NCBI GenBank assembly: GCA_964036195.1
Contig: OZ038454.1
Location: 28,196,315 to 28,260,314 of the forward strand
DNA length: 64,000 nt
Origin: Sphaerolaimus hirsutus
Taxonomy: Eukaryota; Nematoda; Chromadorea; Monhysterida; Sphaerolaimidae
Direction of reading: 5' to 3'
A program made the translations under genes and the position numbers. The notes under the pieces are model-generated. The model was not told where the DNA came from and made no database searches. It was given only the letters and a program-made list of their open reading frames with translations. This document shows, piece after piece, positions 6,101 through 30,100 of this stretch; position 1 is the first letter of the stretch, and every line of letters starts with the position of its first letter.

Positions 6101-9100
6101 ATGCGACATTGCCGAATATCCCGCATGTGATTACATTGTCTGTCAACGCAATTCACCGCACAAATCCATCAAGCAAATCCATGATTCCCTATATTATTAA
6201 GCTAACATTGCGATAATAATTGCTGCTCAATTCACCAAGCGCACAGTAGCAAAATCATGGCTGTGTAAAGTTAAGTAAAAATGACATCGCTCATGATTTT
6301 GCTCCTGTGCTTTATACAGTATTTCCAGTTTGAATCATCGTTATAAAATCATTAGGGCTGGAAAATCACCATGTATTAGCGTACCGAAAATAATTTCAAT
6401 ACTTGGCACCATGCCAAGGCCTATACCCTTACACTCGCCCCTCTTTGCTGTTGTAATGCCCTCATACAACTTACTTAACAGTGAAATAGATAAAATGTAA
6501 CATTCAGAAATGTAAAATGTGAATGTATAAAGCCATCACCTTAGTTGACTCAGTAAATACTTCAAACCAGAGTGTAAAAATACCATCAAAACTTATGTTG
6601 GTTGTAATTTTAATTGGCACTTATCTTAAGCGTTTGAAAAGCCTGTAAGCATGCGATAGTATCCTGTGTTGAAAATTCCTTACGGGTGTTTGTCAGAAAC
6701 CAAATATTTATCACGTGCTGCCCAGTAACGTATGTGTGTTCCAGGATCTTGAATTTGGTATCATCCTTGTGATTGATCAGCCGAATTGCCATGCCCTGTG
6801 GTACTGTCAACTGGATGTCTGTCTCTATATATTGTTTTTCCGTTGGCACAACCATGATCATGCGCCGTGGCATAATTTGCAGTGTATTGTTACTGGTTTC
6901 AGGGAACAATGCAAATATGGCCGAGCTGCTCACAAACAATCTTGGTACTGTTTGAATACCCATTTCTGGTTCTGGTTCTGGTTTTGCTGATTTTACCAGT
7001 TCTCTCTGTAGTTCTGGTGAATTGTTGAAGATTTCATTCTCATATTCCATTGCTCCACCACTTGGCAGTGGGGTAGCCTTCCAGCGTGACATAGAATCAC
7101 CCAGCAGATCACAATATAGTGCACCAATTTCATCATTTTCTGGACATTGATTTATTTTTATCATCCCAATGACTTTTTTCTTTGGGTTCAACCTTAGGTT
7201 GTATCTGGTAGCTGTTCGAGGCCTGCTGTGCGGATATTTATGCACAATAGGCATTTCATCTTCATCTGAGTCCTCCAGGCCAATTGGGATGTCATCAGCA
7301 GCACCGCTCAACTCTGGCTGCAGTTGATTTGTGCTTGCTGTTACATCGCCTTGTGGTGATGTTTCTTGGTCTTTAGCCATGTCTACAGGCTGTTCTTCTT
7401 GTTGGTGCTCTGCATTTTGCTGAATTGCGGATTCTCCCTGTCCAAAGGTGGGATATATATCCTCCCTTGGATGCCACATTTTAACCAACATAGCTGGAAA
7501 CTTAATGCTGGGTGCATCAGGTTCATTCCATTTTTGGAGGTATACTGTCTTTGGTGGATTTCCAGTCATTTTTGTGACCATGTATGGTCCCACCCAGACA
7601 TCTTTGGTTTTTCCTGTCTGATCCTTTGGAATGGTGAATGATTTCTTTAGTACCAGGCAACCTAAATGCAGCTTCTGTGCATTTGTGCATTTTCTGTCAT
7701 GAATTTCTTTGTTTGTGTCATTTTGCACTTGGTTGCTTTTGTTGGCAAAGGCCCAAATCTGTCTCATATTGAGCAACAGGGTGTGCATGTATGTGGGGTA
7801 TTCCATCATAGCTTCAAACTGCTTTGGCCGCAGGTCAGCTGCCACTGTAGTTCTTGGCATTTGTCCAAACACACACATGTATGGTGAGACGCCTGTGGCT
7901 GAATGTACTGCCATTCTGTTGGCCATCAGTGCATATGGCAGCCAAGTGGGCCAATCATGATGGTCCAAATCTCTCATACATGCTGCCAGTAGTCCCAATA
8001 GACTACGGTTTGCCCTTTCCACCATGCCATTGCTTTGTGGGTGAAATGGTGCTGTGCTGATCTTTCTGATCTGAAAGAGCTTCGTAATTTCTGTGAAAAT
8101 TTCTCCTGTGAATGACGCATGACAATCTGATGTCAGGTACGCTGGTGCCCCATACTTGCAAATCCAATTTTCTACCAGCATCTGTGCTGCAGTTTTTGCA
8201 TCGGTTCGCTCCACAGCCCATCCATCTGCCCAGCGTGAACATTTGTCCACCACCAAAAATACATAACTGTGACCAGAATAACTGGTAGGCAGTTCCAGAT
8301 GGTCAATGTGGACCCATTCAAATGGCTGTAACACTGGCTGCATATCAGGCAGTGGCAGTCTTGTTTTTGGCACTGGTGAGTTGCGGGTTTGGCAGTGCAT
8401 GCATGTTTTGACATAGTTGTACATGTCAGAGCGCATTTCAGGCCAGTACAAATGTTGTGCCATCAATGACAAACTTTTCCTTGCATTCAAATGGCCTGCA
8501 ACAGACGTGTCATGATGTTCTGCCATCATTTGTGCTCGCAGTGATTTTGGTACAAACACCCTCATACGTTTTGCCTTTTCAGGTGGTGATGTTGGATTGC
8601 GTACATATGCCAGCAAGTTGGGATATGCGTAGTGTGGTCCCAAGCATGGTCTGTCACCATTTTCCATCTGTTTGATTAACTGCTGTGTCTCTTTGTCGTG
8701 TTCCTGGGCTGCTGCTAGCCTTTCTCTCCAATTTCTCAATTGATTTGGGGTTGGTTCACCAGCATCTTGTGGTGATTTCAACGTAGCCATTATTTTCACT
8801 GGTTCAGGTTGACTTTCAGTTGTTTTTTCTTTGTTAGTATTTCTTGGTCCCTTGTAAGGATCTTTGATTTCTTCTGTAGGTTCGTATGGTGGCAGCTGTC
8901 TCCACCAAGGCCTTGGTTTTGGAATTTTGGCATCATCCAACTCAATTTCCATTGGTGGATTGTCAATCCTTGCCAGTAATTCGTGGTCCTGACCTGTTGG
9001 TGCTCGTGACAAAGCATCCGCTACCACATTGGCTTTTCCAGGTCGATGTTTCACATTGAGATCATACCCTGCCAATGTCAAACAGATTCGTGTCAGATAC

Positions 9101-12100
9101 TGTGAATGCCCTTTTGCATTCATCAAATATGCCAGTGCCCTACTGTCTGTGTACACTGTCACTTTTCTGCCCATGCACAAGTGTTTGAACTTTTCCAATA
9201 TCCATGCCAATGCTTCAGCTTCTCTGATCATTGCATGAAAATCATTGCGATTGTCAGCCACCATTGTTGATGCAAATGCAATTGGTCTGACCTCTCCAGT
9301 TTCTGGTTGACATTGTTCCAGCACAGCCCCATACCCATGTACTGGTGGACAGGCTGCATCCACAGAAATGATCAACTCGAGTTCTGGTCTATAAAATGCC
9401 AGCACTGGTGCTGACACCATTGCTTTTTTGAGTGATTCAAAGGCTGCCAATCTTTCTTCTGTCCATTCAAATTCAACACTCTCTTTTGTCAGTTCCACCA
9501 TTGGTTTGGCAATTATTGAATAATTCCTGATGAATCGCCTGTAAAATCCACACATGCCCAGGAATGATTTTACACCTGTCCGATTTTGTGGTAGTGGAAA
9601 ATTTTCAATGGTTTGTGTCTTGCTGACATCCTGCTCAATGCCTCTGCCTGACAATTTGAAGCCCAGAAAAATGCATTCACTCGTTCCAAATAAGCATTTC
9701 TTTGCCTTGAACTTTAAGCGGTACATTCTGGCTCTTTCTAACACTGCTGTTAAATCCTGCAGATGCTTTTCAACTGATGGTGATGCAGTTAGTAGATCAT
9801 CCATATAGGCCAGTACATTCTTGTTTATAATGGGCTCAAATATGGTAGTTATGGCTCTAGCATATGATGCTGGTGCCGTGCTGAGTCCAAATGGCATTCT
9901 GGTGAAGTGGTATAGCTGGCCATTTGCTACTGCAAAGGCCGTTTTCTCAGCATCGTCAGGGTGCATTGGCAGTTGCCAATATGCTCCCAAACAATCCAAG
10001 CTACTAAAGATCTTTGGATTGAGCTCTGCAATTCTATCAAAAATCTCTGCCTGATCTGGTGCTGGAAAGGCATCACTCTCTGTGATCAGGTTCAGTTCCC
10101 TGAAGTCTTGGCACAAACGGTGTGTGTCATCCTTTTTCTTAACCATGACAATTGCTGCACGCCATGGGCTGTTGGACTTCACAATGACACCTGATCGGAG
10201 CATTGAATTCAGTTGCTCTTCCACTACATCGCGGAGATGTGGTGGTGTCCTCCGTGGTGGCAGCTGAATGGGAGGTTTGTCACCTGTTCTGATACGGTGA
10301 TATATGCCTCCTGTTATTGTTGTCAATTCACCATAATCTAATGCAAAACAATCATGAAATTGTTTTAGCAAATCTTTCAATTGTTCTTTCTGTTCTGCTG
10401 TCAATCCATCTCCAAATTCCCACACTTTCTCCAGTTTTTCCAAGCGTTCTTGAAGTGACTTCCCTGTCAGTTCATGTAAAATTATTTCATCTGGTTTTAC
10501 TCCAGTATTTGGTTTCTGCATGTGGCTTCGGAATTCCTGATTAACTGCATTCACTGTTGTTTCTGGTGGTTTAGTGGTTTGTTGTGCCAAAGGAATTGCT
10601 GTACCAGCTAACTCCACATATCCAACAACTTCTCCTTTTGGAAGACATCTGTGTTGTGCTGACATGTTGTAAATATCAATGCATAACATGTCATGTCCAC
10701 CTGGGACTCTGAGATATGGCAGCATCAACCCTCTGATGTTTGCAGCTGGCATTGGTATAAACACCAAATTTCTTTGAGGGTCACCTGATGGTAGTCCAGC
10801 TATCATAACTGGTATCCTTTTTCTGGTGTTACTCCTAATAAATTCTTGACTAATCAATTTCACTGGCCAGCTGGCTGCTGGTGGTCCTTGTGTAGATGTT
10901 GAGTCACATGCGGGTCCAAGTCCAATTTGTCGTGATCCAATCCACACACGGTTGGTTGTATAGCAAATAGTCAGACGTTTAAATCTTCGGAGTAAATCTC
11001 CACCCAGCAGTAACTCATCAGTTAGGTTCTTCACTACATGGAATGTGTGTTGCAAAGTCAGTCCAGCAATAATCACAGGAACAGTCACTTGCCCTGGAAT
11101 GATTAGTGGATGACCAGTGATGGACACTAAATTGCTTTTTTCTGTCAATGTTTGTATTGGTCCGATTCCCAATGCATGCACAATTTTCTCATCTATCAGA
11201 CTGCATTGTGCCCCTGAGTCCAAAAGTGCTGCCAATGTTGTATTTGCAATACTGGCAGCAACATACAACAAGTTTCGTTTGTTGACAAATTGTATTGCTT
11301 TTACTTCATTGATTTTCTTTTGCATTTCTGGTTGTTCATTTTTCTGATTTGGTGATTCTGCCCATGCTTTGTCTTGGCCATAGTGTATGGTTAGAACACC
11401 AACTGATTGTAGGACATCATTTCCCAGGATGACTTGGTCCCCCAGTTCATCAGATACATGCAATGAATGTATGTGTTGCTGGCCCATCAGACCAATTTCT
11501 GCTGTGACTAATCCTGCACTTGGTATCACATGTCCTGTTGCTGATGTGAGCTGTGATCCATCATTGGCTATGGGCTCATACACCAAGTTGAGTGTATCAG
11601 CCAAGTTCTTTCCAATCAGACTACATTGTGCCCCAGTGTCCAGCATGGCTGTAATCTGTTCTTCATTGATGAGCATCATGGCATTTGGCACTATGTAATG
11701 GTCTTCTGTTTCTGCTGCTGTGATCATATTTATGATCTCCACAGGCCTTAAGACGATTGTTTCTCCATGAAGTGTAACACTCCGACCGTGTGTCAATGCT
11801 GGTGGGTTAGTACTTGGTCTAACCATACTTTCTATTTCAGATGGTGGTGCTGGGGCAGCTCTAGTAGGCCTTCTAATAGTTGTTGCCATGGGCATACTAT
11901 GCCTATGTGGATATCGATTCCTGAATCTTTGTACTGCTTGATAACATCTGCTGAGAGTGGCAATCTGCTGCCACATCCATTGGCTGAGTCTGATAATGTA
12001 ATCAAGTGCATTATGTGTCAGCTTTGCTCTGATGGCCAGTGGAATACAGCATTTCACCATGATAAAACACCATGCTGCCACTATTGGGATGACTGTCAGG

Positions 12101-15100
12101 ATGATAACAATCTTCACCCATATATTGGATTTTGTTTTCATTATTCCTGTCACCACTGAATTCTGCGCCACTTGTTCAATGTTCTTTTTCACTGTCAGTT
12201 CCTGCTGCAGACCCAAGCCTGTCAGCAACTCATGGTGTGCCTGTAGCAAGTCAGTTTCATAAGCTTTGTCACTCCATTGTGAAAGTGCTTTGTATGGATG
12301 TAAGCCCATTGGCATGCTGGCTGCTGGTTCAATTTCAACCTGGTGCTGGTGTACGTATGTCAGTGGTAAGGGTGGTAGCTCTTTGATCTGCTGCAGAATT
12401 CCACTAACTGCTTCATATCTGACCGTTTTGTTATGTATTTGGAGTAGTTGTCTGTCGGCCATGGCACAGGGGACATCATATGTCCACTTGGTTATCATTA
12501 ATGTCTCTGGGTCCAGAAAGAATGGTCCTTTTTCAATTGCAGCAAACTGAATGGGTATATCTTTGGTACATTGGCCTGTTGTCACATTCATTGGTAGAAT
12601 GTGATAAGTACCATTTGCTAATGGTCTGCAATACCACACATGTATGACATTACCCACTGTTTTGGCAGTAAGATATTGGTGCTCCAATATCATTCTGATG
12701 GTTTCAGTTGGATCAGATTTCAGCTGGCTAATTGTTATTGCATACAGTGCTTTCAGCATTTTACAGTGATTGACCATTAAAAATTCAAAATAGAATCTTT
12801 GTGATTGGTCTGCATGTAACTGCCTCAAAGTGGCTTTTGCTGCAGCCACCTCTGACATAGTTCGGTCTTCAGGAATGATGGTGATTCCTGTCAGTGATTT
12901 GATTGCTGTGTCTCCACTGATGATTGTTTCTACAGCAAAACCTTGGTCGCTCAAATACAATTGTTTTCCACAATCAACAATTTCTTGTGGTTTAGTAAAT
13001 GTCAAAGCTAATAATCCATCCTCAGCAATCCATTGTCTCTGTAGACCAACACCTGGAAGCTTTTTCCATGGCTCATACTGGCATTCTGCAGAGGTATTAG
13101 CTTGCCATATCAACAACTGATGTTCTGGTAGCACACATTGATTTTCCACATAGTGACATTTTGATACGTCAGTTCCCAATGTTGACCACATTTGATTTTG
13201 TCTACTTTTCTGATATACTGTTGTTTGTTGCAATGCACACTGAGTGACTGTGGTTGACAATGTTTTACAACACCGTAAGCCACCATTTGTGGGTAGTTTT
13301 GATGCTGTGTTCCAACTCCTAAATTGGTTTGTCCCTGATGCCTTCATGTCTCCTGCTTTTTGACAATGATGGTAATCCATCATTCTTTTGCATTCAACTG
13401 CTGATACTGATTGGGGTACATGTGTCACATTTGTATAACTGGTATACAGAAACGTAGTGTACTTTGTATGAATCTCTGTCCATTTGGTGCACACATGTGC
13501 TTCTGTGACATGTTGGTATGTGTTTTGTCTATACAATTGCAATGTCAATTTGCTTGGTGCTGCAAACTCTGCTGTTGTTGAATACTGACATTTGATATCT
13601 GGTGGAATGGCATAACTGGCTGTTGGTGGTTGATCCATAGGGCATAACATTGGATCCATAGCTTGGATGCAATGAGTGCCCAATGTGAACAGAATCAAAT
13701 ACAATTCCATGCTGAGAGTCTGTGACGATTTTACACTGAACATTGAAATAATTGCACAACTATGAATACAATAGAATGAGGTAAACTCATATGAGTGTGG
13801 TAATATATTACCATTTGCAGTCTCTGTAAAATAATATACGATATATAGTATTTGCCATTCATTCTGGTTTTGTGAATTTGATACTCAACACGTTAATCCA
13901 ACATACTAATGTAAATATCAACATTCCATGATCACAGTGATTGTACTTGGAGATTGTAATATTTATTGGATTTGTGTGTGTTTGTTTTGTTTTGAAGTAA
14001 ATTTACAATATCCAAGTTTCTGGGTAAATAACAAGTAAACAAGTAACAAATAACACAACAATAGTGAAAGGAACATGCACATTTATTAATTAAAAATAAA
14101 GAGATAATATTTACTCATGCATGTTACTCCCACTGACCTTTCCGTTTCTGCCCTTTATATTTATTTTGAGGTTATTTGGGGTTTTTTATTTTGATTTGTT
14201 TCCCGTCCATTTAGTCCGAAAAAGTGTTTTGAGTTTTGTGCCGCGATGCAGTGTGGTAAATCACTTCTCTTCATCAGCGCTCTGGCCTCTGTCACTCTGT
14301 CTGGTCTCATTATGAAAGCGCCATTCTCGGCAATGTGAGAAAACAAAGTTTTCCATGCAGCTGTAGTCTTTGACAATGTGAACAGCGGTTTGAAATCTGC
14401 CATGATCACAATGCATCTCCTTTGTCTGGTTAATGCTACACACAAACGCAGCATGTTTGTGAGGTGTGTCAGCTGGTTGTATCTGGTATTCACTGACCAC
14501 CCCGGGATCAAAATGATATCTGATGCCTGTGACCCTTGTGCAATGTCACATGTGGTCACTTTGACATTCATCTTTCGCTTTGATTTTCCATGCTTGACTG
14601 ACTTGCATCCCTCCAGGAGGTCAGCTTGCAGTTCTTTGTAATATGCCAGCACTTGGAGCTGTGACAAGGCCTCTGGGCCAGCTGTTGCTGACCATTCACT
14701 GATGAAATTGATGAACTGGCTCCTGGTCTGTTCACATTTTCTGCTGACCTTATTCCCATCTGTTGTCTGTGGGATGGCTTCTGTCTCCACATCTAACCAG
14801 TAGATGGCAGGTAGATATTGCTTTGTGCCATCTGATAGCAGTTTGTATGGTATGGGAAATCCTGGTGGTGCATTGGCTCTAAATTCCTCCTTAGTATGGA
14901 AGACGATTGGTGCAGTCAGATGGCCACCATATATCAGTTGCTTCACCAATCCTGCATGTTCAACTGGAGCTCTGTACACTTCACTCAATCTGAAGCACTG
15001 CTGGCGCGGAATTGCTGAACTCATTCTGGTCAGTGCCCCCTCATTGAAAACTGTTTCCACAACTCTTCTGACAGCTGTGTGACCTAAAGTAGGCCTGCCC

Positions 15101-18100
15101 AACTGGTATTCATCTCCAAGCAATAGGACAATAAATCTCCTGCTGATTTGATCACTTGCACTGAGTAGGCATAGCAACTCACACAGCTCCATCTTGGTCA
15201 CTTTAGTGGACTCATCCACCACCAACATGGAGAATCTGCACTCTCTAATTTTGCTTAATGCTGTGCTAATTGTTGCAGTCACAATTTGGCAGTCTCTATT
15301 GATCATATTATCCATTCCTGCTGTTTCCAGCTCCTTTTCATTCTGACACTGCTTCATTTGTTCAATCCATGATTCTGGCACTTGCTCATCCTTGTTCAAT
15401 TTGCAGTCGTCTGGTATGTTGCCCTGGCGACTTCTCTCATATTGTTCCATTTTTCGGGCTGTTGCCTTGAGTTTATGGTGCCTCCAACCATGCTGCATGG
15501 CTTCTCTGGTTTTGAGCCATTCATCAATGGCAGCTGCCATGTTGTCTACTGCTCCATTGTCTGTTGCAGTGACCAAAACTTTGGTTGCTTGTGGCTCTGT
15601 TTTGTGCCTCTCAGCACCTGCATGAAGGTGACGTGCTATACCCTTCACAGCAGTTGTATTCTTGCCAGATCCTGCCGGGGCTTTGATGGTGGCACAATTG
15701 ACATTTGTCTTCAAAGTGCTGAGTATGGCATCCTGTTTGTCATTGAGGCCATCTGGTCTGTCATCTGGGTAGGCATACACCGTATAATCTCTGTGCGCAG
15801 CGGGTATCATGTCTATTTGCCAGCGATGTTTTGGCAATAACACTTTCATGATTGCCAGTTCTGCCTCTGATTTCCATGGATTCATCAATGCATATGCTAT
15901 GGACACATATGTATGTTTGTCTTTTTCATCACTGACTTGTTGCTCAGTTTTGATGCATGCTTCACTCCTTCCCATTTTTCTGTGTTTTGTGAGGTAGTTC
16001 ATTGCACCTTTTGACAGCACTGCCACACTAAGCTGTTGCCTAGTGCCATTCTGACATGGTGTGATAGCTGTCAAAATGCCTGGCACTTCTAGTTCTGGTT
16101 TCTTGAATGCCAGCTTTATTGGTGTGCAACTAGTCCATGTTTGAGTTTCCATTGGGACTTTCACATAAAACACTATGTGAGTAAAATCCTCTGATCTGAT
16201 GATTTCAAAGTCACATGTCCATGGTGTACTTTGTCCTTTTGGCTGATTCATTTCTCTGGTCATTCTGGCCAGATGGTATTCATCTGCCAAGGTCTGCATT
16301 GCCTGGTAAATTAACATCTGTTCATCTGGTTCTTTCATCATTGCCACAATGTGAGCCCAATGCCAGGCCTGCCAGAACATCCATTCGATCTTGGCATCTT
16401 GCTGTTGTTGGGTTGTGAGACAGCCCCCATTAGCTGTCTGTTCATATGGCATGAATGCCAGCCTTCTCAACTCTTCCAGTCCTTGCAAGGTTTCCAGTCG
16501 GTTTACATACAAGCCTTCTTGCAGACATAAGGCTGTGGTTGGAAAGTATATCATCACATGCCTGATTGACAGTATAGGTCCCACTTGGTTATTTATTTCC
16601 ACGCTTGGCGCCAAATCTGATATTTTCTGTAGTTTCTGAATACCTTTCATCAATGGTTGAATGATGCCATTCTCTTCAATGCCAGGGACCCAAAATAGTG
16701 GCTGACCCTTTTGGATGCTTTCCACAACCACCTTTGGCATGGTGTGATCACAGATCCAAAATTCTTTGGTGTGCTTCCTGACAACTACTGACAATCCTGC
16801 TTGGTATGCCATTCCCAGATCCTTGATCTGACTGAGTATGCCAACCATTGGGGCCACAATTCCTCTTTGATTTTTCTGGCCAATCATTTTTTTCATCACC
16901 ATCACTTCACATCCCTGCCAGCTTGTTCCAGTAGCATACCTGGCAATTGCCAGATAATATGCAGGGACCTTTGCTGACCACAGATCAGGGGTCTCCTAGG
17001 GGGGGGGCTGGGGGGGGGCTGCCCCCCCCCAAATCGGCCAGCTATCTATCTATCCCGGAGGCCGCTCAGCTATCTATCTATCCCGAGGCAAAATTTTTGG
17101 CTACTACCCCCAAAGACCCCCCCCCCAAATCGCTCAGCTATCTATCTATCTGGAGTGGTTTTTGAGAAATTTTGCCCCAATTTTCGCTCAAAATCACCAA
17201 TTTTCGCACCTTTTTATAGTTTTTCACCATCAAAATCGTGCTTTCCGGTTTTATACACGGTTATATACCTATTTTTAGCCATTTTATACCTACTTTTGGC
17301 TACTTTTAACTGATTATTAGCGATTTTTTCCCGTTTCTGCCTTCTTAACCTTGAAAAAGCCTATATATTGTGCCCCCGCCAGCCCCCCCCCAAGCCCCCC
17401 CCCCCAGCCCCCCCCCAGAAAATTTTTCCAGCTATCTATCCCTCCGGAGGAGCGATTTGCTATCTATCCAGCCCCCGCGAGGGCCAAAATCCTGGAGACC
17501 CCTGCCACAGATAGAGCTGTTGGAGGGGTGTTTTGATGTGTACCTGAGCCCACTGGCCTCTCTCCACTACTACTGTGGCTTCTGTGCCTATGAGCATTTC
17601 CCAATAGATATTCTCCAGAAGATGTCGCAGATCTGACGGGGATATACGTTCAGCATGTGAAATTCTCAAATCTGGATGTATTTTGCCATCTTGCATTCTG
17701 TCTTTGGCATATGTGACTCCATGCCTGGTAGGGTCACTATGTGGAATCAATGCCATTTGTCTTTTGTTCTCTCCTGGTGGCACTGAGTGTAATGCTCGTC
17801 TCAACTGGTCTGTCTCAAATCCTGCCATGACCAGTCTGCCATCCAAAATTTCCTCTGTGACATATAGATTTTCTGGTTCCATTGGCTCATCCAATTCCTG
17901 CACTGTTTGTTCTGCCATTCCTGCACAACTGTCATCCATTGATTCTGGTTCAACAGGTCCTTCCACCCAGTCATCAATGTCCCAGTCATAATACACTCTG
18001 GTTTCTGTTACTGTAAAAAGAAAGTTGTTTTATTTGGTTTTTAATGTTTCTATAAGTATGTGATAAAATTCCTGGTATATGTTGTATAGAATTTTTTTTT

Positions 18101-21100
18101 GTTGTGTTGAGAAGTAACATTGCCTCTTCATGACAATAGTCATTAGAAGGCTAGAAAACCATCACCAAAATAAATCCACAAAGTTGTAAGTGGGTGCCAA
18201 TTCAAGTGTCAGTTGGCTCAGACTCCTCCACACTCATTTCAATATTGTTGTCCTTGACCATTGCCAGAAGTGCTGGCAGGTCATTCTTTGCCACACTGAA
18301 ATGGCTCATCATTTCTGGCTCTGAGTCTGAGTCAGCTTCACCATATTCTGCTGTGGTGCATTCATGGGCAACACGTTGAATTCTATGTGCCATTTTCTGA
18401 GGCCCTGCCTGTTCTGCAGGCTTTCTAGGTCTTTCCTGGGCCTTTTCAAACCTTTCCTTTGGATATTTGTCAACCCCAGCTCCATCAGTCAGTTTCTGAT
18501 TTCCATCTTTCTGCCCTGACTCATTCTGTGCAACTCGTGGTTGGTGAAAGCGGCGTTCGCGTGACCTATTGTGGTATTGGTTTCTGGGTGCTCCAGCCCT
18601 CTCCACTTTGGGTGGTGCTACAGCTCTGGCTGTGTAGTTCACTTGCTGGACATTCATAGCTTTAGGAAAACGCCATCGGTGCAATGGAATTTCATCCAGT
18701 TTTTCGTTGGTGTTGCCCATTGCGCCCAACAAATTCACTTGGGGATTGTTAGATGCCCAGCCCATGCCTGCATTTTTCATTCTGGCTGCACTTTCCTCTA
18801 ACTTTTCCAGCATAGACATCAGCAGTTGGAAGTCAGTGGGTGGTTCGAGTGATTGAATGGATACTAAAGCCATCAATTCATCTGACATGCTGCAGAAAAC
18901 TTTTTCACCAGTTCTTTGAGCCACTTGCTCGATGGATGCTGTGGGATTCAGTGCGCGCACCAAGCGGTGCACATGGTCAGCATACTTGGTGATTGGTAAG
19001 TGCCCTTGTTTTGCAGCATCCAGTTCCCTCAGCATAGCATTGCGCCTAGCTGGTGTATGGAATCTCCTTTCCATGGCTTGGCAGAGTTGGCGCCAATCCA
19101 TGCGCTGGGTAAACGACAACTCTTCATAACATTGCAGTGCTGGTCCAGACAAAAATGGAGGCAGCAAATCGCACATCTCGCTCTCATTCAAGTCCAGCGA
19201 TTTTGCCATTGTGATGAAGTTTTCCACAAACATCGCCCATGCTTGATCACTTTCCCCTGTGAAAATGTTCATTCTGCGCTGCATGTTTGCCATTCTGAGC
19301 TTCCATGTGACTGTATTCACAGCATTTTTGCGAGGGTTCCTGTTTGATTGGTCACCATTGCTATCTGGAGTCCGCCCAGTCTGTCCCATCTGCCGTTCAC
19401 GTGCAAACTCTTGCCTCATTTGGTCTCGAATTTCAGTGGCTAGAATCTTCACAATGTCATTCTGGTTTGTGCCCACCATATTTGCTCCTGGGTTTGCTGG
19501 CTGTGCATGTGGTACCACTGCAAATGACAGATCCTGTGGCGCCTGCTGAACAAGCCTGCCACCTTGATCCTGATCCTGAGCCCTTGTTTGCTGTGCTGCA
19601 GCATTCATCTCCTTCACAATCTCTGCAGCTGCCATCTGGACAGCCTGCCCTTTCAACTCCAATATCTTGAGCAGCGTGTCCACTTTCATTTCAGCCATAA
19701 CTTCTTTGAACTGTTCCCTCAATTCCTCCTGGACTCCTGGGGAGTTATTCAGCATTTCCACCATTGTATTGTATGCCTGTTGCAGGGGGCGCAGATGCTG
19801 TGTCTTGTCAGCACTGGTCAATGTCATCAACCTGACAGCCTCAGTTATCATTCTGTCATCTCCAGAGGGTTCGATTTGCCCCAGGGCATCTGTGCAAACA
19901 TTGGCAAGCATAACTTAAAATAACTGAAATTGAATAAAATAAATAAAATTGGTGATTGGATACAAAGCAATAAAGTGACTTAATTGTCCTTAGAAATGAG
20001 GAAATTTGTTAATAAGGTTATGTATTTTCCACAAGATATAAATTACTGGGATTGCAATTGCTATTATACACAGAAAACATGCAATATCTCTACACATCAT
20101 ATACCAGGTTTTACATTTTTGTGACATACTTGTTTCAGAAGTTGACGACATCATTTACAGCCTTGGTTGAATGAGTGAGTAGATTAGGATTTTTATTGGG
20201 AATATGTTATTGAAATTGTATCGTAGATGATTTTTAGGTGTCTAAAAGTAAATGTGGAGTTCTTAGTATGGTGTCATGAATAAAAATGTGGTTTCTAATA
20301 AAATTGACATTGTGACATTGAAAGTTGACAGCAAAGGTAGGGGTTAATGCAGCATTTAAGAGTAAATTGGAATTATGGGTCTAACTCTTAGTTGCTTGCA
20401 GTTGCTTAATCAATGCGCGGAGTTGTTCAAAACTTTTTAAATTAAGTAGATTTTAAGCGAAGTAGGTATTATGATAATGCGCAGAAAATGTGGAAAAATC
20501 ATTAGGAAATATAAAAATAATGCGCACAGAAATACATACATGTCACACATCCACACATCCATCCCCACCATCCCACCATCCCCCTCCCCAAGGGAAAAGC
20601 CTGCCCCAGGCGTAAGAGGGGAGGAAAGGTAAAGGGAAAAACAAAACACAAAGGAAAAAAGAGTAAAAAAAAAAATTTTTTGAAACTGACCGGTGCCTTG
20701 GTATAAAATCCTGTGTTAATACTGAAAACAATAGGGATCAAAGTAGAGTGTTGAAATCCATTGCGAAATGGTTATTATATTGTTTGGGATAGATTGTCCC
20801 ATTTGGATACACACTGAATCATTTTTACTAAAAAGAAAAAATTCAAACTCTGCATTCGCGATGGAAGTAAAATTACCTAATTTCAGTTTTCCCTGCAGTA
20901 TCTTTTGGTCTAATTCCAGTTTATTGGTGACACAAGGGTTATTAGAGTGTCTGGAAAGGTGTGTTACTTTAAATATTTACCTTTTACTTGGTATTGCCTA
21001 CTTTGGTTTATTTGGCCAAGTGCCAAATTTAAAGTGAGATTGATTTGGGTTTGTTTGTTGTTGTTTTTTTTTGGGGGGTTTTTATTGAGAATGTGTGTTC

Positions 21101-24100
21101 CTTTCTTTTAGTTCACAGTTGTAAAGTGGTTTTTTGTTTTAGAATTTTAAGATGTTGTTGCTAAAAGTTAGAAAATTTGTATGAGTAAGTTCCGCGGTTA
21201 AATTCTTTAGATTTTTAATCTTGAGCTAAACTTGTTTCTTATGGTTGAGAGGAGGATTTCTAAGCTCATTTTAAGCTCATTTTCTTCCATTCAAGCCCTT
21301 AAATCCCCCCAAACCAACTTGCAGACACTTTTCCCTTGGACTGTGGTGTGACCTGAGATTATTCCCTGAACCTCAAGGTGGCTTTCCTCTGGACTGGGCT
21401 CTGGACATTTTGCTGTGATTTTCTTGTTTCTGATTGGCTTTGTCTTGAAATAAAATGAGTAATTGCTTTGCCTACTGTTTATATGCGTTTAAAGTTAATA
21501 CCAGTTCTGTGTTTGATGTTTTGTGGAGGGTTCCCAGGAAAAAGAATGTTTAAGAATATTTTAACTAAAATTTTTGTTGAATGATTAGTTTTTATTTTAT
21601 TTTAAATTTACTGGTATTTTCTGAGGGTTTTTGTTTGAACTACAGTTTTTAAACAATGCTTATTCCAAATTGAGCCAAAGTTCAATGTCAATGTTCTTGC
21701 CTTTTATCCTCATAACTAAATCATTTTTGAGGTGTTTCCCTCTAAAAGATCTTCTCTCAGTAGGTCAAACTGTGTCATAGAAACTACATGTTAACTCACT
21801 GGGCGGTCCTTTCTGATGACCTCTTCTGGTTTAGCGGGGCTTGTCTCAGTGACTGTGTAGTAGACACAGTGGGGCACATTGAGAATGTTTTATTCAAACC
21901 CAACCCTCAAATTTGAATTGTTATGAACTCACACCTTCAAGACTAAAACTTAAAATTCGGCATTGTCTTAAAAGCTTTAGTTTGGGTTTTTCTTGCTGTC
22001 TGGTGATGTCTACACCTCTATCAAAGGTTGGTTTCCCTTTGTAGTGTTGAGTTTCCCCCAAAAGGTAGTGTGGTACCTGTCCCCTCATTCTTTAGTCTTT
22101 TACCCTGATTGTCAAGGTGACTTTAAAAATGGGTTTTTGAGTGTTTTTACTGGGTTATTGAGACTAGCAGCTTTCAGTGAGCAAAATGGATGGTCACATG
22201 TGTTTACCTGACCTCTGGTTCTTGAATAATCCCCTTTTTAGTTTTTTTTTATTTTAAATTTTAAGTAAAATCCCCGAAGTTGGACAACTTTTGAGATGTT
22301 TTGTTCCTAGTGTAATTATATTGAATTTACCAGTCTCAACTACTTTTCTGGTTACAATTTACAGGAACCTGGCTTTCAACCTTGGAAATTGAGTGAGTTG
22401 TGATTTTTTTAATTAGTTTTTACAGTTTGGAAGGGTGCCAAATGAGTATTTAGTGTATTTAAGGTATGTACAAGGTTAAGTGCAAGTGGGTCAAATACTC
22501 CATACCATTTTCTCTCACCTCAGGTGTATTGAGTTCCTTATGCACTTATTCAGAAACCTAATTAAATATTTAAACCTGAAAAAAAAAATCATTTATGTGG
22601 TTTTCTTCAGAAATTTAAGCGAAATTTCACATTTTCTTTTAAAACTATTGAGAGTTTTGAACTCAGCATGAAATTGTGATTAAAATGAGTGGTTTTGTAT
22701 CCTTTTTTGATTAAACTTGAGTGAATTACAGATGAATGAAAATTTAACGTTTATTATTATTTTGTTAGGTGTTTCTCAGTAAAACGTCATTTTTAGTCAA
22801 GTATTGTGAATTTTCACATGTTCATTTAAGTTTTTTGTTTTAGCTTGACCCCTAGTGTCCACATATTTATTTACATCCCAAGCTTAGTTTAGCTATTGGA
22901 GATAAGATAAATTAGGAAAGTACTTGCTGGGTCGAAATTTCGCTAAGGGAGTTTCTTATCGGAAATGAATTAGTCTACATATTGAGCCACGTCTTAGGGA
23001 AATACAACATATTATTTGGTATTTTTACATTGAGCTTAGTACTTTGGGCACATTGGAATTTCTGTCTCTGGAATGATTCATTTCATCGGAAATCTTTTGT
23101 GTTGAATTTGTGCCTAAATATTTGTTGTAGACAGTTCTAAATAGTTGACTAAACAGTTTGAAATTCACTTCGCTCAAAAGCTGAAAATTTTGGTGAAATG
23201 TCTCTGAAAATCGAGATGTTTTTTGTGAGTTTTGAATTTGTATTTTTTTTGTATTTTATTCACTCCTTTTGATACCTATTTTCTTTTCACTTCCTATTAC
23301 ATGTGCAAATTCATTTGAGAAATGAAAACTTACTTGAAATTTCCATCCAGTTTTGAAATTTCCATGGGTTTTATGTATTCCTCTGTGAGCGCCCCTCCTT
23401 ACTGAAACTGCTCTCTCCCATCATCTCAGGTGCTCGCTTTGGCTGTCGGCTCTGTGGGCTTCGATCCTGGCGATACTGGCATAGTGGGCGGATTGTGCCA
23501 GCTGGACCAGGCTGATGCAGTGCTCCTTTGCAATGGGACGCGCCAGCAGCTCCAACAGGCGACAGCCCTGCCCTGGGCTACTCGAATTCCAGGGGGTCCC
23601 TTTGTGGTGCTGTGGCGGGGAGACAGGTGTCCACCCCTGAAGGAGCTGGGTCGCTTTGCACATGTTACTGTGTGCTATGAGGTCAGTTTGGGTGAATGTT
23701 TGACATGTTGTTGTTATTTTGACATTTTTCTATTTTCTTTTGGTTGGGTTGATATTTAGCAAGTGGTGATTTCGTAAATTTTTGTTGAAATGTGTTGGTG
23801 AATTTTGAGGGTGAAAACTTGGGTATTTTTGTTTTTAGGATTTGGAACCGAAGTTGGCAACCACGTTGGCGCCCACAACCTACCTGCCCGCAACCGCAAC
23901 CGACCCCATGATATCCCAGTGAGTTGGGGTTGGTTGTAAATTTTATTTATTTATGTTTTTGTTTTGAATATTTTGTGGTGTATTTTGGGTAAAATGGGAA
24001 TGTATTTACTGGTGATTTCTTACATTATCTTAATCCCATGATCATTCCTTTATGCAGGCCCGCTATGGCCAGCACCTTGACGAGCTCCACTTTCCGCTCC

Positions 24101-27100
24101 ACCTTGGTTCCCGCCATGATCATTACCACTAGGAAACCAGCCAGGAAATTTAAGTGAGTTAGCTAATAGTTTTGGGAATTTTATTTTTTTATTTTTACCT
24201 CGTCAAGTTTTATATGGGATTTTTATTTTTATTTATTTTTGAAGAGTAGTTTGAGAACGTACCTGATTATTCCTGTTTCCATTCAGGGTGGTGGTCTTCT
24301 GCCATGGCCCCTGCCTAGGCCAAACTGCTGTGATGACCGTTGGGCCTGGTACCAGTACGGACACTATTTACGACACTGCTGCCCGGAAATTTGGTTTCGG
24401 CACCGAGCGGCTCAGCATTGTGGATGGCTACAACCATTACCTGCCCAGGCGCAAGAACTTGGCCCAGTGTGGCATCACTGGCTCAGAGCATTTTGTAGCT
24501 AGCGGTGAGTGGGTTGCTTGTGTGGTGTTTTTATGCTTTTCATTTTCTTTTTGGTGTTGTTTAGTGCAGTTAGGGTTAGGTGTTCACAAAAAACAAACAG
24601 TAGTGAGTTGTGTATTATCTCCTTTTCAGTGCGGAAGGCAGTCACCCCCACCACGGCTGTGCCCACAGCCATAGTTTCAAGCAGCACCAGCAGTACCACC
24701 ACCACCAGGACCACAACTAACCTGCTGTCCACTGCCACATCCACCATCATTCTGACCAGCCCAGCCACCAGTTCCTTGTCAGATACCACGTTTAGTGATG
24801 TCTGGTCAAGCCAACAAACCACCCAACCTGAGACTGCTGAGCCTGATGATCTGGTGATTGCTGTTGCTGCTGAGCCCACAGATGGAGGAACAGGGTTTTG
24901 GGGAGATACCACTGTGAGTTTTGGGTGTTATTCAGTGGGTTTTGGTGCATTTTTGGCATTTTAAACTTAAGAGTGCATGTGTGAAAGCATGTTTGCATTT
25001 TATGCATTTTGTTGTCCATTACAGGTCGCCGACGCGGTTCTGGCCTTCGTGTTTGCTGTCCCCTGCGCCATCATCGTGTTTTTCATCTGGGAATCGCTGG
25101 TTTTCTTGTGGAGAACTCGAGGCTCTGACCCAGTGAGCACGTCTTCCGTTGAGGATGGTGTGGACGAATTTGTGCTCAATGTGGCTGGCGAAAATGCTCT
25201 AGGTTAGAAACATTTCACATGTCTAATTTGAGGTGTTTTTCAATACTTTTGTCAAAGTAGTGTTATTTTTTTACCGTCACTCATGCTTTACACATTTTTG
25301 CAGAGTGCCACTCCATGCTGAGTTTCCGGTCCGCGGTGGACGAAATGGGTGCTGCATCGAGGGCTGAAAACGAAAGTGTAGCTGCCGGTTTGGCCATTCC
25401 CATGCAGCCTAGGTGAGCTATAGGCTAGGTGAAATAAGTGCTGATGCATTGTGAAATGAAAACTTCATTTTGTCATTTTCCATTCAGGTTCTCCGAGGCC
25501 TATGTGTGCAGCAGGGTGACTGAGACGGAGTGCTAGATGTAGGATTTGTAGTGTTTGGTAGATTTTGGTGTAGATTGGACAGTTAGAGTTTTTGTGGAGA
25601 TTTTCTTACCTTTGTTCTGTCAGATAAGTAATTGTTCCATTTGTCTGTCTAAGCCTTACTTCATGATAGATTCTGCTGCCAGTAGGACATCTTGCTAGTA
25701 AAATGTATGTCCGCGCTTTGTAATGCTTAATGTGGTGTATTTTTATCTACTTCATGGTGCATTTATTTTACCTGTTTGTAACAAATGCAAATGCAAAGAA
25801 ACTGCCATTGCGCAGGAAATTTTCTAAACTAAATTTACTAAAAATGTCTCAGCGGCTGGCTAAAATTCCTGGCATTCCCCCAACTAAGCGGAATTACAAT
25901 AAGCAGCCTAATTCTAGCATGGTGCAAGTGGTGTCCAAACTAAAATTTACCTGGTGCTTTTCGGTGCACACTGTCATGGCTTTTTTGGTGGCATTCATTT
26001 TACTGGGTGTCATTCTGTTGATTGGGCTCTATGGCTACTTGCCTGGCTATTTTGTGACTAGTAAGTGTATTTTTTGAAACCTAGACATGCGGAATCAACT
26101 TACCATGAAAAATCGGGATTCACATTTTTCTTGTAGCCTCCACTTGTTATGACTGCAATGTTTTGCCTCCCTGGCGCCAAAACCCTGACAGTTTTCCCTG
26201 TGGTCAGTGCACTGGGCACTATTGCATCAAGAGTGACACCATGTTGGGCAGTCAGTTTCAATTTTTATTATTTTTACTCTCCGGGCATTTGCATTTGTTG
26301 CACATTTGCATTCATGCTTCAGCTGCTCTGTCTAGCCAGAAGAGTTGTGGTTTTGGCCAGATTCCTGCGGCTGACGCCTGTGAAACTAAGGAATGGGAAT
26401 CTGGGGTGCTCCAACATCATTGCTACTGCACTGGGCACTTGTGTAATGTGGGTGCCGTGAAAGTGTACTTTTGGTTTTCAATTGCTTTTGGATTGGTGGG
26501 CATTTTGTTGTTGCAGGTGTAACTGCTCTTGCATTAGGGTTTTCTTCTGATCAATTCTCTTGCCTCGATTCTTCCTTTTTACCTTGCCATGGTTATTTTT
26601 TTTATGAGTTCCATTTTGAGTCATCATGCATTAGCATGAATTCTCGGTGAGATTGGTGAATGCATGTGTAAAACTAAAGCAAGAAGCGCGAAGCAAACAG
26701 TGTAACAATCACTTTCTTGTTTTCTTACCAAAAACAACAAATTCATGGTGGCTTGTCCCAACCACACCATTTCAACTGGACAGCATTTTGGAGATGGCCG
26801 ATAATCCCCATTCTGCCCTGTCATTGGCCTGCTGCCATAAGTGACCAAATTTACCCAACTTTTCTTTGGGGGGGCACTACATACTTATGTCAGTGTTTGC
26901 ATGGCACAACGTGTAAGCAGGTGATCACAGCGGATGCACTTATGTTGGGCTGTGATTCACGCACCGTCCATGTCGGCTGATGGAGGGGAGAGCTGGGGGG
27001 ATATCCCTTGTCAGTGCATCTACCACCCAAACCTTAGTAAGTATGTGAGCAATTCTGCATCCTTGGGACACTCAGAATTTTGCAGGTGTGATTTTCCCAC

Positions 27101-30100
27101 TAGGCCTCTCCACACACACACCCTGCTCTGGGGTGGGAGGCCATGCTTGCGTAGTTTTACCTAAGTGACATTTCATGCAATAGGTGACTTCTCATCTATG
27201 CAGTTTTACACATGTAGTACATCAAATACTACTAGTTTTTTATAATTTTTAAAATAGTTTTTTGAAGCGAGGTTGTTGTTGTTTTATAAAATATTTTATT
27301 TTGAATTTATTCAGTAGAAATTGAAATTATATACTACACGCTATTTTGATTGCATGCACACTCTAATTCAGTACCTACTGTGTGCATGTAATTGATTTCA
27401 TGTTGCATAATTACATCTCATGGGACACTTGTATATTTACACACTAAACATTGCTAACTTGGTAAATGCGTATTTTTGATCTGGAAATGTCAGGTCCAGT
27501 GTTGATCAGGCACTGCGCCATTGTTCCCAGTCTTTAAATGTGTGTCGGTAAATCTGTGTAGTTATAAATTGTCTGCATTTCTTGTGTATTTCATCTTGTA
27601 TTTTACTTTACTCTTGGCTTGGTATTTTATGTTTTTACCTGTAGTCTTGTAAAGTGTTTAAATTTGGAGAAATTATGTGTAAATGTGTAAATAAAGAGAG
27701 TTATAAACATAAAGAGAACTTCCTGTTTATCACATTACCGATTACCTCAGTCGGTGTCATTGGCCTCTGTTGCCATTTAGTTGCCATTCTGCTGTCACAG
27801 AGATGGTTTTTTGGACTCTTTCCAACTCGTGAAAGAAAGAATAAAACTCGGGAGCCATTAATTTAAGGGTCATCTGTGGATTTACCTTGGAGAAGTGCCA
27901 ACTTCCCAACCCTAGCAGAGAGGTATTTACAGTTACTCGTTTACGGAGAATCATTAAATGTCATGTTTATGACTGCGGTTTTTATTATTAATTATTTGTG
28001 GTTTGTTGTAGTTGATTAGTTGTTTTGGTTAAGGGGAAAAGTTAGATTTTAATTGGAAGGGAGTGTATTTATTATAATAAGCAAGCGTGAAAATCCACAA
28101 GAGAAAAGCAGTCATTATTTTGGGGTGAGAAGTAACAGTCTTAGTTAATTTGGCCTTTCAGTCAAGTAACTAAATGAGCCATTCGGAATTTTGGGGGCCC
28201 TTGGTAGGATCTTTTATGTGCACAATTTTCTCCTTTGCTGGAATTCTGTTTTCCAAACCAAAATCCAAAACTGACTGCTGTTTTCAGGTGGTCGGCGGTA
28301 TTATAAAACCTATTTCACATGCGACATTGCCGAATATCCCGCATGTGATTACATTGTCTGTCAACGCAATTCACCGCACAAATCCATCAAGCAAATCCAT
28401 GATTCCCTATATTATTAAGCTAACATTGCGATAATAATTGCTGCTCAATTCACCAAGCGCACAGTAGCAAAATCATGGCTGTGTAAAGTTAAGTAAAAAT
28501 GACATCGCTCATGATTTTGCTCCTGTGCTTTATACAGTATTTCCAGTTTGAATCATCGTTATAAAATCATTAGGGCTGGAAAATCACCATGTATTAGCGT
28601 ACCGAAAATAATTTCAATACTTGGCACCATGCCAAGGCCTATACCCTTACAAGACAACCAGAAAAAGCACCCATTTACCTGACTACTTTTGTTCGAGTCG
28701 TCAGCAACGACGTTTTTCCCTCTCGATTTAGCACCGTTAGAATTTTGGTCGGCCATCGCTGCCTGCGTTTTACTAATTTAAAGGTAAAGCGTTTTACTAA
28801 TTTATGCAAATTTCAGCATCTAGATACTTACATGTTTGCATGAAGAACGCGCCGTGTGACTAAAAAATTATAACAAGAAATAATGATGAAAGAAAATGCA
28901 AATAACCTCTCGCCAATGTTGTTCACAAAATTTCTGGGCGGTAATGCATTCAAATGAATTAATCAAAAAGTTTTAACAAAAATTTCACTTCAATTAACAG
29001 ATACCGAAACTATCCATACTTGCATTTTATCATGAAAGCAGCGAAGAAAAGGGAATTTAAAATTGAGAAAACTAAAGTAAGCCGTTACAGCTAATTGGCT
29101 ATAGTTGCTAGGATACGCGCATACATGGAAATAAGTAAATACCTGCGCAGTGTAGTCTGATAATTTATTAAGACGCTTCCCCCAACATTTATTTTCTACC
29201 GAAGATTTTACTGTAAATAATTTAAACACTTACAATTTTTTCCGAGAAAGTTTTTCCGGTACTGTGGAGAATTTCATCGAGTTGAATATTGACCATATCT
29301 GGCTTGTCTGACATTAATCAATCGAAAAAGTTGGAAGCAATATCGAAACAAATCGAGATATTGGAACCTAAAGTAACACTGGCCTCAACACCCGGTTTTG
29401 TCTACAATTGAGACGTCTAATTCTAAAAGTGAGTAAATCGCATTTTAAGTTTCAAACCCCCGTGGTGAGTCTCCAATTTGGCTCTCTCATGTTTTCCATT
29501 AAGTTCCATGTGTTGACAATAAAGTGTAAAATTTTCAGCCCCTGCTCTCAACCTATATGTGAAAAATGGGGTGTCCATAAAATTCCATTTGGTCTAGGGT
29601 GTCAACAAAAACTTTTTGGCGGAAAACGGAAACGGAAACGGAAAAAAAATTACACTTGCCGGAAAACGGAAACGGAAAAAAATTTGCACCTGCCGGAAAA
29701 CGGACAAATGAAAGGCCGGAAAACGGAAACGGAAAAATTTGCTGAAATTATGCCGGAAACGGAAAAAATATGCTGAAATTTTGCCGGAAACGGAAAATAA
29801 ATTGCAGAAATTTATCCAGAAATCAAAAAATTTTCAGAAATCTTGCTAGAAAAAGAAACAATTCACATAATTGAGAACCTGCATGCATGTTTACCAGTTT
29901 GGCTGAAACAGAAAACAGAGAATTGGGTCAGAAAATGGAAAAAAGTTGGAAAAACAGACAATTGAGCCGGAAAACGGAAAAAAGGTGGAAAAACTGAAAT
30001 TTTAGCCGGAAAACAGAAAATGAGCCGGAAAAACGGAAACGGAAAAAAAATTTAGCAGCCGGAAAACGGAAACGGAAAAAAATTTGCCTGCGGAAAGCGG

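What the first reader, a model, noticed from the sequence alone, without database searches (positions are those of the whole stretch)
23198..25536. Nine-exon antisense membrane-protein gene carried inside a retroelement
All nine exons have compatible phase and GT-AG borders, and build a signal peptide, ectodomain, Thr/Ser stalk, membrane helix and tail. Because the gene is antisense to the genomic RNA, its introns are invisible to splicing of that RNA and would survive transposition. It could be a captured host surface receptor or a novel accessory gene.
Basis: partly seen in the sequence, partly recalled or inferred. Interest (0 to 1): 0.9.

Follow-up and report, generated by a model that had tools for sequence, protein, structure and literature searches.

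The report
Antisense spliced gene pair in retroelement
An animal retrovirus-like element carries, on its reverse strand, two intron-containing genes for membrane proteins; because they face backwards their introns can survive copying through RNA, and related element families in the same genome have kept the pair, so the genes are probably useful to the element.

Summary
The nine exons join in frame (430 aa, eight GT-AG introns). They lie on the opposite strand of a complete 23.0-kb Ty3/gypsy element (window 5643-28651; identical 791-bp LTRs; 4-bp TSD). A second antisense three-exon gene follows (25844-26522; Ly6/uPAR-like, ten conserved cysteines).

Other copies decide the matter. Six LTR-flanked copies on six contigs carry the module with its introns at the same place; gene 1 reads through undamaged in 3 of 6. 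Two further element families carry both genes with the same shared intron positions and phases. Between families A and B protein identity is 38% (gene 1) and 56% (gene 2), introns largely fail to align, and nonsynonymous change stays below synonymous change. Of 34 reverse-transcriptase places at least 86% identical to the window's, 23 have both genes upstream on the opposite strand; none has them on the same strand.

So this is very likely a selected, element-borne antisense accessory module, not a one-off insertion. I infer that antisense transcripts make surface proteins. Transcription was not testable. Antisense accessory ORFs and spliced antisense retroviral genes are known; a 9-11-exon membrane-protein gene in the 5' leader appears to be a new variant.

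The parts
5643..28651 (-). Complete Ty3/gypsy LTR element, 23,009 bp, sense strand = minus
   Evidence: Identical 791-bp LTRs, TSD, gag/PR/RT/RH/INT
27861..28651 (-). 5' LTR (sense orientation)
5643..6433 (-). 3' LTR (sense orientation)
27840..27857 (-). Probable primer-binding site starting TGGCTCCCGAG, beside the 5' LTR; its first ten bases recur at the matching place in family B (read as such by eye; no tRNA matched by a search)
23198..25536 (+). Antisense gene 1, nine exons, 430 aa; by reading: signal peptide (exons 1-2), Cys-bearing domain (exon 2), Thr/Ser-rich segment (3-4), possible ubiquitin-like domain (5), Thr/Ser stalk (6), membrane helix (7), tail (7-9)
   Evidence: conservation
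23430..23681 (+). Gene 1 exon 2, the best conserved part of gene 1 (61-66% aa in most family B places)
   Evidence: dN 0.273, dS 1.41
24287..24504 (+). Gene 1 exon 5 (218 nt in families A, B and C), possible ubiquitin-like fold (low-confidence model)
24630..24913 (+). Gene 1 exon 6, Thr/Ser-rich stalk
25025..25202 (+). Gene 1 exon 7, membrane helix and start of tail
   Evidence: by reading
25844..26522 (+). Antisense gene 2, three exons (25844-26060, 26137-26250, 26323-26522), 176 aa: N-terminal membrane anchor, ten-cysteine Ly6/uPAR-like domain, C-terminal hydrophobic segment (topology by reading)
   Evidence: homologues in families B and C
19924..26728 (-). Predicted sense leader intron (donor TTTTTG|GTAAGAA, acceptor TTCAATTTCAG|, 12 nt before the gag ATG) that would contain both antisense genes; inferred
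26722..27090 (-). Leader segment conserved between families A and B (261 of 380 columns), ending at the predicted sense donor
18202..19914 (-). gag ORF (Retrotrans_gag)
17460..18029 (-). ORF of unknown function; a weak match (34% over 70 columns) follows gag in family B
14161..16995 (-). Superfamily-1-type helicase ORF (AAA_11, AAA_12)
6610..13884 (-). Env-like fusion glycoprotein (PF24664) followed in the same 2424-aa frame by protease, RT, RNase H, integrase

Best explanation
This is an ambisense, envelope-bearing Ty3/gypsy element that carries a conserved two-gene accessory module on its antisense strand, in the long leader between the 5' LTR and gag. SHOWN: both genes are open here, contain introns, are antisense to gag and pol, lie between paired LTRs, recur at the same place in six copies and in three families with the same intron positions, and evolve under protein-level constraint between families A and B. 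INFERRED: antisense transcripts from an internal promoter are spliced to give (1) a type I membrane protein with a mucin-like stalk and (2) a Ly6/uPAR-like membrane protein. The genomic RNA carries only the complement of the introns, so the spliceosome ignores them and reverse transcription hands them on intact. Gag mRNA is probably made by splicing out a 6.8-kb leader intron in which both antisense genes sit. The two proteins most likely act at the surface of the infected cell or particle alongside the element's own fusion protein (attachment, superinfection control or evasion of host recognition).
For: Exact nine-exon model. Complete element with identical LTRs and TSD. Exon 5 at 97-100% in 5 places. 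Five other copies align over the module, introns included, at 93-99% in their long blocks and run into an LTR. Of 28 LTR matches 16 are strong, twelve of them forming six pairs round the six module copies. Gene 1 frame and splice sites undamaged in 3 of 6 copies. Family B: 11-exon homologue with all eight introns of the window gene at the same positions and phases, gag on the opposite strand, homologous gene 2. Family C (one copy): seven of seven introns from exon 2 on at the same phases, both genes open. 23 of 34 RT places at >=86% identity have both genes 5' of the RT on the opposite strand within 45 kb, 0 of 34 on the same strand. A versus B: exon 2 dN 0.273, dS 1.41; exon 5 0.629, 2.14; gene 2 ectodomain 0.171, 1.86. 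Gene 2: PF17064 at E 0.0024 (A) and 1.8e-4 (B); ten cysteines invariant A-B. Env: PF24664, E 3.3e-9, above its cut-off when the first 711 residues are scanned alone.
Against: No transcript evidence. The dS values are near saturation. Among copies of family A exons are only slightly less diverged than introns (lower in 4 of 5 comparisons, higher in C7), as expected of copies that drift after insertion, and 3 of 6 copies have a damaged gene 1. 11 of 34 RT places show neither gene, and in one of these (L042) the region searched held neither the module nor gag, so the module is not present in every related element. No relatives of either protein were found in the protein collection. Scanned on the whole 2424-aa ORF the env match is below its cut-off (14.9 bits). 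Function rests on domain layout alone.
Confidence: 0.78

Rival explanations
1. The main role of the module is its introns, not its proteins: spliceable introns inside the integrated element mark it as host-like and counter silencing of intronless DNA (as HUSH does in mammals); the proteins are secondary.
For: In human cells HUSH represses long intronless transgenes and an intron counteracts repression; [quoted passage not shown] Introns here are kept at fixed positions across families.
Against: Protein sequence is constrained, not only splice sites, and two whole genes are kept. HUSH was not looked for in this host. The introns are short (75-205 nt) and antisense to the gag-pol transcript.
Confidence: 0.12
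2. Hitchhiking: an ancestor captured a stretch of host DNA with two intact genes in antisense, and the genes are passive cargo decaying at different rates.
For: Antisense capture would explain retained introns; gene 2 resembles an animal gene family; three of six A copies are damaged.
Against: Open frames and splice sites persist in three families; A and B are 38% (gene 1) and 56% (gene 2) identical with introns largely unalignable; nonsynonymous change is well below synonymous; divergence is like that of gag (52% aa over 543 aligned codons).
Confidence: 0.06
3. The antisense RNA itself is the working product, regulating the sense transcript or feeding small RNAs, and the reading frames matter little.
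For: Antisense transcription, and a possible regulatory role of it, is described for LTR elements (passages of PMC7264820).
Against: Frame, intron phase and domain order are conserved while synonymous sites are not.
Confidence: 0.04

Closest known systems
Antisense additional ORFs of plant LTR elements (maize Grande gene23, rice RIRE2, Silene Retand)
   Same: Genes antisense to gag-pol, kept in most copies of a family and across species; Grande's is transcribed from its own promoter (passages of PMC7264820 and PMC11963269)
   Different: [quoted passage not shown] the word 'intron' occurs 0 times in both main texts. Where a place or activity is given, it is nuclear or DNA-binding. Here: 9-11 and 3 exons, membrane proteins, between 5' LTR and gag
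Deltaretrovirus antisense genes (HTLV-1 HBZ, APH-2 to APH-4)
   Same: Protein-coding, spliced antisense transcripts of a retrovirus (passages of PMC10186651)
   Different: Start in the 3' LTR, encode mainly nuclear regulators, and have far fewer exons (recalled); here many internal introns and membrane proteins
Burro giant gypsy elements of planarians
   Same: Giant gypsy element with a mononegavirus-type env in frame between gag and pol, and accessory ORFs (section 7 of PMC6431247)
   Different: 'antisense' occurs 0 times in that paper's main text; the BIR, ankyrin, MATH and BCL2 domains named there did not appear in the Pfam scans of the sense ORFs here
Engineered lentiviral reporter with an intron-containing cassette in reverse orientation
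   Same: Same trick to bring an intron through an RNA stage (legend in PMC8770142)
   Different: Man-made; here natural and inherited
Ly6/uPAR and Quiver (QVR) proteins of animals
   Same: Gene 2: ten cysteines ending in C-N, membrane attached (by reading)
   Different: N-terminal membrane anchor in place of a signal peptide; below the Pfam cut-off

Membership tests
Ty3/gypsy LTR retroelement | Paired LTRs with short target-site duplication | tested here: met
   791/791 identical, AGAC on both sides
Ty3/gypsy LTR retroelement | gag and PR-RT-RNase H-integrase in that order | tested here: met
Burro-type giant gypsy | env in frame with and upstream of PR-RT | tested here: met
   PF24664 E 3.3e-9 on the first 711 residues of the 2424-aa ORF; E 0.0068, below cut-off, on the whole ORF
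Burro-type giant gypsy | Apoptosis and ubiquitin-related accessory domains (BIR, BCL2, MATH, ankyrin) | tested here: not met
   Absent from the Pfam scans of the four large sense ORFs at E 0.01
Burro-type giant gypsy | RT phylogeny | not tested
   No Burro sequence fetched; not filed as a Burro element
Antisense aORF elements (Grande/Retand type) | Conserved protein gene antisense to gag-pol in most copies | tested here: met
   23 of 34 RT places examined
[quoted passage not shown]
   Module lies between 5' LTR and gag
Deltaretrovirus HBZ/APH type | Spliced antisense protein gene | tested here: inconclusive
   Exon structure conserved; no RNA data
Deltaretrovirus HBZ/APH type | Promoter in the 3' LTR | not testable with these tools
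   No transcript starts available
Ly6/uPAR (QVR) domain, gene 2 | Profile match | tested here: inconclusive
   PF17064 19.3 and 22.9 bits against a cut-off of 27.3
Ly6/uPAR (QVR) domain, gene 2 | Ten cysteines with terminal C-N (definition recalled) | tested here: met
   C76, 79, 94, 97, 102, 119, 130, 144, 146, 151 and N152 invariant A-B
Ubiquitin-like fold, gene 1 exon 5 | Beta-grasp fold | tested here: inconclusive
   [not shown]

The most novel reading that the evidence does not exclude
A natural class of ambisense endogenous retrovirus-like elements uses antisense orientation to carry intron-rich, host-style genes through an RNA life cycle. The introns let the element look like host DNA to surveillance that silences intronless insertions, and the two encoded glycoproteins (a mucin-stalked protein with an extracellular ubiquitin-like domain, and a Ly6-like protein) work with the in-frame fusion protein at the cell or particle surface.
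Probability: 0.15. Interest if true: 0.93.

Novelty: new variant of a known kind. Interest (0 to 1): 0.82.

Why it matters
Retroelements normally lose introns because they copy themselves through RNA. Here is a natural lineage that has kept many introns by placing the genes antisense, over enough time for the proteins to diverge to 38% and 56% identity between two families. It shows that complex intron-bearing genes can be stable cargo of a retroelement, suggests a route for moving whole host-style genes, and makes testable whether introns protect an element from silencing of intronless DNA. Annotation that looks only for sense or unspliced ORFs would miss such genes, so more may exist.

Tried and rejected
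Homologues of gene 1 (the 7994 candidates sharing most words were scored, none at E <= 1) and of gene 2 as a two-row profile (988 candidates, none) in the protein collection: none, so no outgroup. Pfam for gene 1: none. PDB by sequence: nothing credible for gene 1 (two XPF rows at E 1.1-1.2), gene 2 or the env part. Viral contigs for pol: none. tRNA and Rfam on the window: none. A model of exon 2 gave no credible fold (pLDDT 51; mixed Foldseek list). The shuffled gene-model test crashed and was not repeated; comparison between families replaced it. The first gene 2 boundaries were off by one base, so the gene 2 translations and counts are void; one search has the right ones.

Considered and rejected: chance ORF mosaic (conserved borders in B and C); a host gene into which the element jumped (LTR pairs lie outside the module in six copies); a one-off insertion (same place in the six copies and in two families); assembly artefact (different contigs, different lesions). 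Of the 17 exon-2 places with no RT nearby I opened four: C3 (L021, a family A copy with LTRs), L043 (a deleted family B module), L041 (family C-like) and L039 (family C-like, broken in exon 2). Of the 8 gene-2 places without RT, three were opened (L021, L039, L040). I saw no host progenitor in these, but 13 exon-2 and 5 gene-2 places were not opened. No search for host Ly6 genes beyond tblastn with gene 2 was made.

Papers: I saw search listings, section 7 and passages of PMC6431247, and passages of PMC12477816, PMC10186651, PMC8220671, PMC11963269, PMC7264820 and PMC8770142. No paper was read whole. That I found no earlier description rests on these nine searches of open-access papers only.
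Full report
What is there. Window 5643-28651 is a complete LTR element on the minus strand: 791-bp LTRs without a single difference, AGAC duplicated outside them, and in sense order a probable primer-binding site, gag, a 189-aa ORF, a superfamily-1-type helicase ORF, and a 2424-aa ORF with protease, RT, RNase H and integrase. The first 711 residues of that last ORF, scanned alone, match the Monjiviricetes fusion glycoprotein over residues 336-644 (PF24664, E 3.3e-9, 35.7 bits against a cut-off of 27); scanned within the whole ORF the match is only 14.9 bits. So env and pol seem to share a frame, as described for the Burro elements of planarians (PMC6431247 section 7). Almost 8 kb separate the 5' LTR from gag. 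That leader holds the finding.

Gene 2. A second antisense gene follows: exons 25844-26060, 26137-26250, 26323-26522, two phase-1 introns, 176 aa. By reading it has a hydrophobic N-terminal anchor, a domain with ten cysteines ending in C-N, and a hydrophobic C-terminus. Pfam's Quiver (Ly6/uPAR) model matches below its cut-off (E 0.0024 here, 1.8e-4 for the family B homologue). The ten cysteines are invariant between the two.

Other copies of the same family. The genome holding the window (348 Mb, 762 contigs) contains exon 5 five times at 97-100% and gene 2 in a sixth, C2, place. Five fetched regions align with the window's leader, introns included, at 93-99% in their long blocks and run into an LTR. 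An LTR search gave 28 matches, 16 of them strong; 12 form six pairs round the six copies and 4 are single. Gene 1 keeps frame and splice sites in the window, C7 and C15 copies (C15 with a 6-base in-frame deletion); C1 has a one-base deletion, C3 several lesions and C2 a large deletion. The C3 copy measures only 8.3 kb from LTR to LTR inclusive, with no RT match between them. Exons are less diverged than introns in 4 of 5 comparisons with the window and slightly more in one (C7); the differences are small.

Other families. A protein search with gene 1 gave 87 match rows. Besides family A, many places match exon 2 at about 48-66% and, at 13 places, exon 5 at 26-35%; in family B gene 2 exons B and C match at 57-73%. 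One place read in detail (L035, family B) yields an 11-exon gene of 453 aa: all eight introns of the window gene at the same position and phase, including the exon 1 junction, plus two extra exons in the Thr/Ser-rich segment. A second B copy (L036) keeps every splice site but has a one-base deletion in the eighth of its eleven exons. Between these two B copies gene 1 has dN 0.023, dS 0.062, introns 57 of 1246 sites different; gene 2 has dN 0.010, dS 0.033 on 8 differences. Gag of family B lies upstream of gene 1 on the opposite strand (L037 475-2181, 49.8% identity over 550 columns), and the same primer-binding-site start sits beyond gene 2. A third family, C (L038; part in L041), has exon 2 at 54-58% to A and B, exon 5 at 28-33% and, in L038, gene 2 at 39-49%. 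In L038 both genes read open, gene 1 from exon 2 on; all seven introns of gene 1 tested and both of gene 2 have the phases of the window genes, and exon 5 (218 nt) and gene 2 exon 2 (114 nt) have the same length in A, B and C. Exon 1 of family C was not sought.

Constraint. Between A and B, blastn over both genes finds four short stretches: three at or about exons 2 and 5 of gene 1 and exon 1 of gene 2, and one spanning exons 2 and 3 of gene 2 with the short intron between them. Exon 2: dN 0.273, dS 1.41. Exon 5: 0.629, 2.14. The C-terminal part is saturated at synonymous sites. Gene 2 ectodomain: 0.171, 1.86; gene 2 whole: 0.370, 1.52; gag: dN 0.383, dS saturated. The dS values are near saturation and serve only to show the direction. 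The antisense genes are about as constrained as gag, while the RT is far more conserved (92%).

How general. A 441-aa RT query gave 96 match rows (95 of 2007 candidates scored), 36 of them at 86% identity or more; two are second pieces of places already listed, leaving 34 places. For exon 2 of gene 1 I took 40 places (one second piece dropped; the other rows of the 87 are other exons), and for gene 2 31 places from 67 rows. 23 of the 34 RT places have both genes 5' of the RT on the opposite strand within 45 kb. Gene 1 exon 2 lies 10.7-14.4 kb away in 22 of them and 34 kb in one (C393); gene 2 lies 14.1-17.6 kb away in 21 and 30 and 37 kb in two. 0 of 34 have either gene on the same strand within 45 kb. 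11 of 34 have neither; five of these are partial RTs and six nearly whole, and in one of the six the region about 10-17 kb upstream held neither module nor gag (L042). So the module is common but not universal, and the counts are not genome totals. 17 exon-2 places and 8 gene-2 places have no RT nearby; four and three of these were opened and look like damaged or internally deleted element copies (L021, L039, L040, L041, L043).

How it probably works. The genomic RNA is the minus strand of the window. Antisense introns appear there as their complements, which splice sites do not fit, so reverse transcription returns them intact. The same orientation was used on purpose in a lentiviral reporter (legend in PMC8770142). 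In sense, a segment conserved between A and B (261 of 380 columns) ends at TTTTTG|GTAAGAA at 26729/26728, and TTCAATTTCAG| ends at 19924, 12 nt before the gag ATG. Family B has a weaker GTATGA at the matching donor place and TTCAATTTAG before gag. I infer a 6805-nt sense leader intron holding both antisense genes: gag mRNA would lose them, genomic RNA keep them. Promoters were not identified.

What it works like and what it is. Functionally the nearest things are the antisense accessory ORFs of plant LTR elements and the spliced antisense genes of deltaretroviruses. It differs from the first in position, introns and protein type, and from the second in intron number (recalled) and protein type. 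It is a Ty3/gypsy element with a Burro-like env-pol arrangement, but it is not filed as a Burro element because the domains reported for Burro were not found and no tree was made. Nine literature searches found no description of a many-exon antisense gene inherited by an LTR element; these cover open-access papers only.

Verdict. Expression and function remain to be shown.

Noticed in passing
window 6610-13884 (-): A Monjiviricetes-type fusion glycoprotein appears fused in one frame to PR-RT-RH-INT; a protein named from the bee Anthophora retusa (P0072) also carries PF24664 together with RT and integrase.
   Followed up: partly
window 14161-16995 (-): Superfamily-1-type helicase ORF between gag and env-pol of a gypsy element; not a usual component as far as I recall.
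   Followed up: no
window 16986-17504: Nested hAT-like non-autonomous insertion with CAGGGGTCTCC terminal inverted repeats and 8-bp duplication CCACAGAT (16978-16985, 17505-17512), between the 189-aa ORF and the helicase ORF; related repeats elsewhere in the window, e.g. 47220-47609.
   Followed up: partly
window 26722-27090 (-) and L035 4604-4963: Conserved sense leader segment just before a predicted 5' splice site; candidate packaging or translation signal.
   Followed up: partly
L035 about 5741-5880: Beside the family B LTR some 48 nt look like the complement of the 3' half of a tRNA (lysine CUU by recall), far longer than a usual primer-binding site.
   Followed up: no
G000: Another gypsy family (RT 37% identical) has many listed copies with single open frames of about 3,730-3,790 aa and identical RT scores, suggesting recent bursts.
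   Followed up: no
G000 C3:22468664-22476987: Family A copy 8.3 kb long that keeps most of the antisense module but has no RT match between its LTRs.
   Followed up: partly
window 41569-42517 and 43763-44185: 59-bp satellite array present in both orientations, about 1.2 kb apart.
   Followed up: no
G000 C1:27997161, C9:7145925, C2:8334978, C9:18744255, C2:8997058, C6:28863002: Related elements with 86-90% RT identity but no detected antisense module; what they carry instead is unknown.
   Followed up: partly
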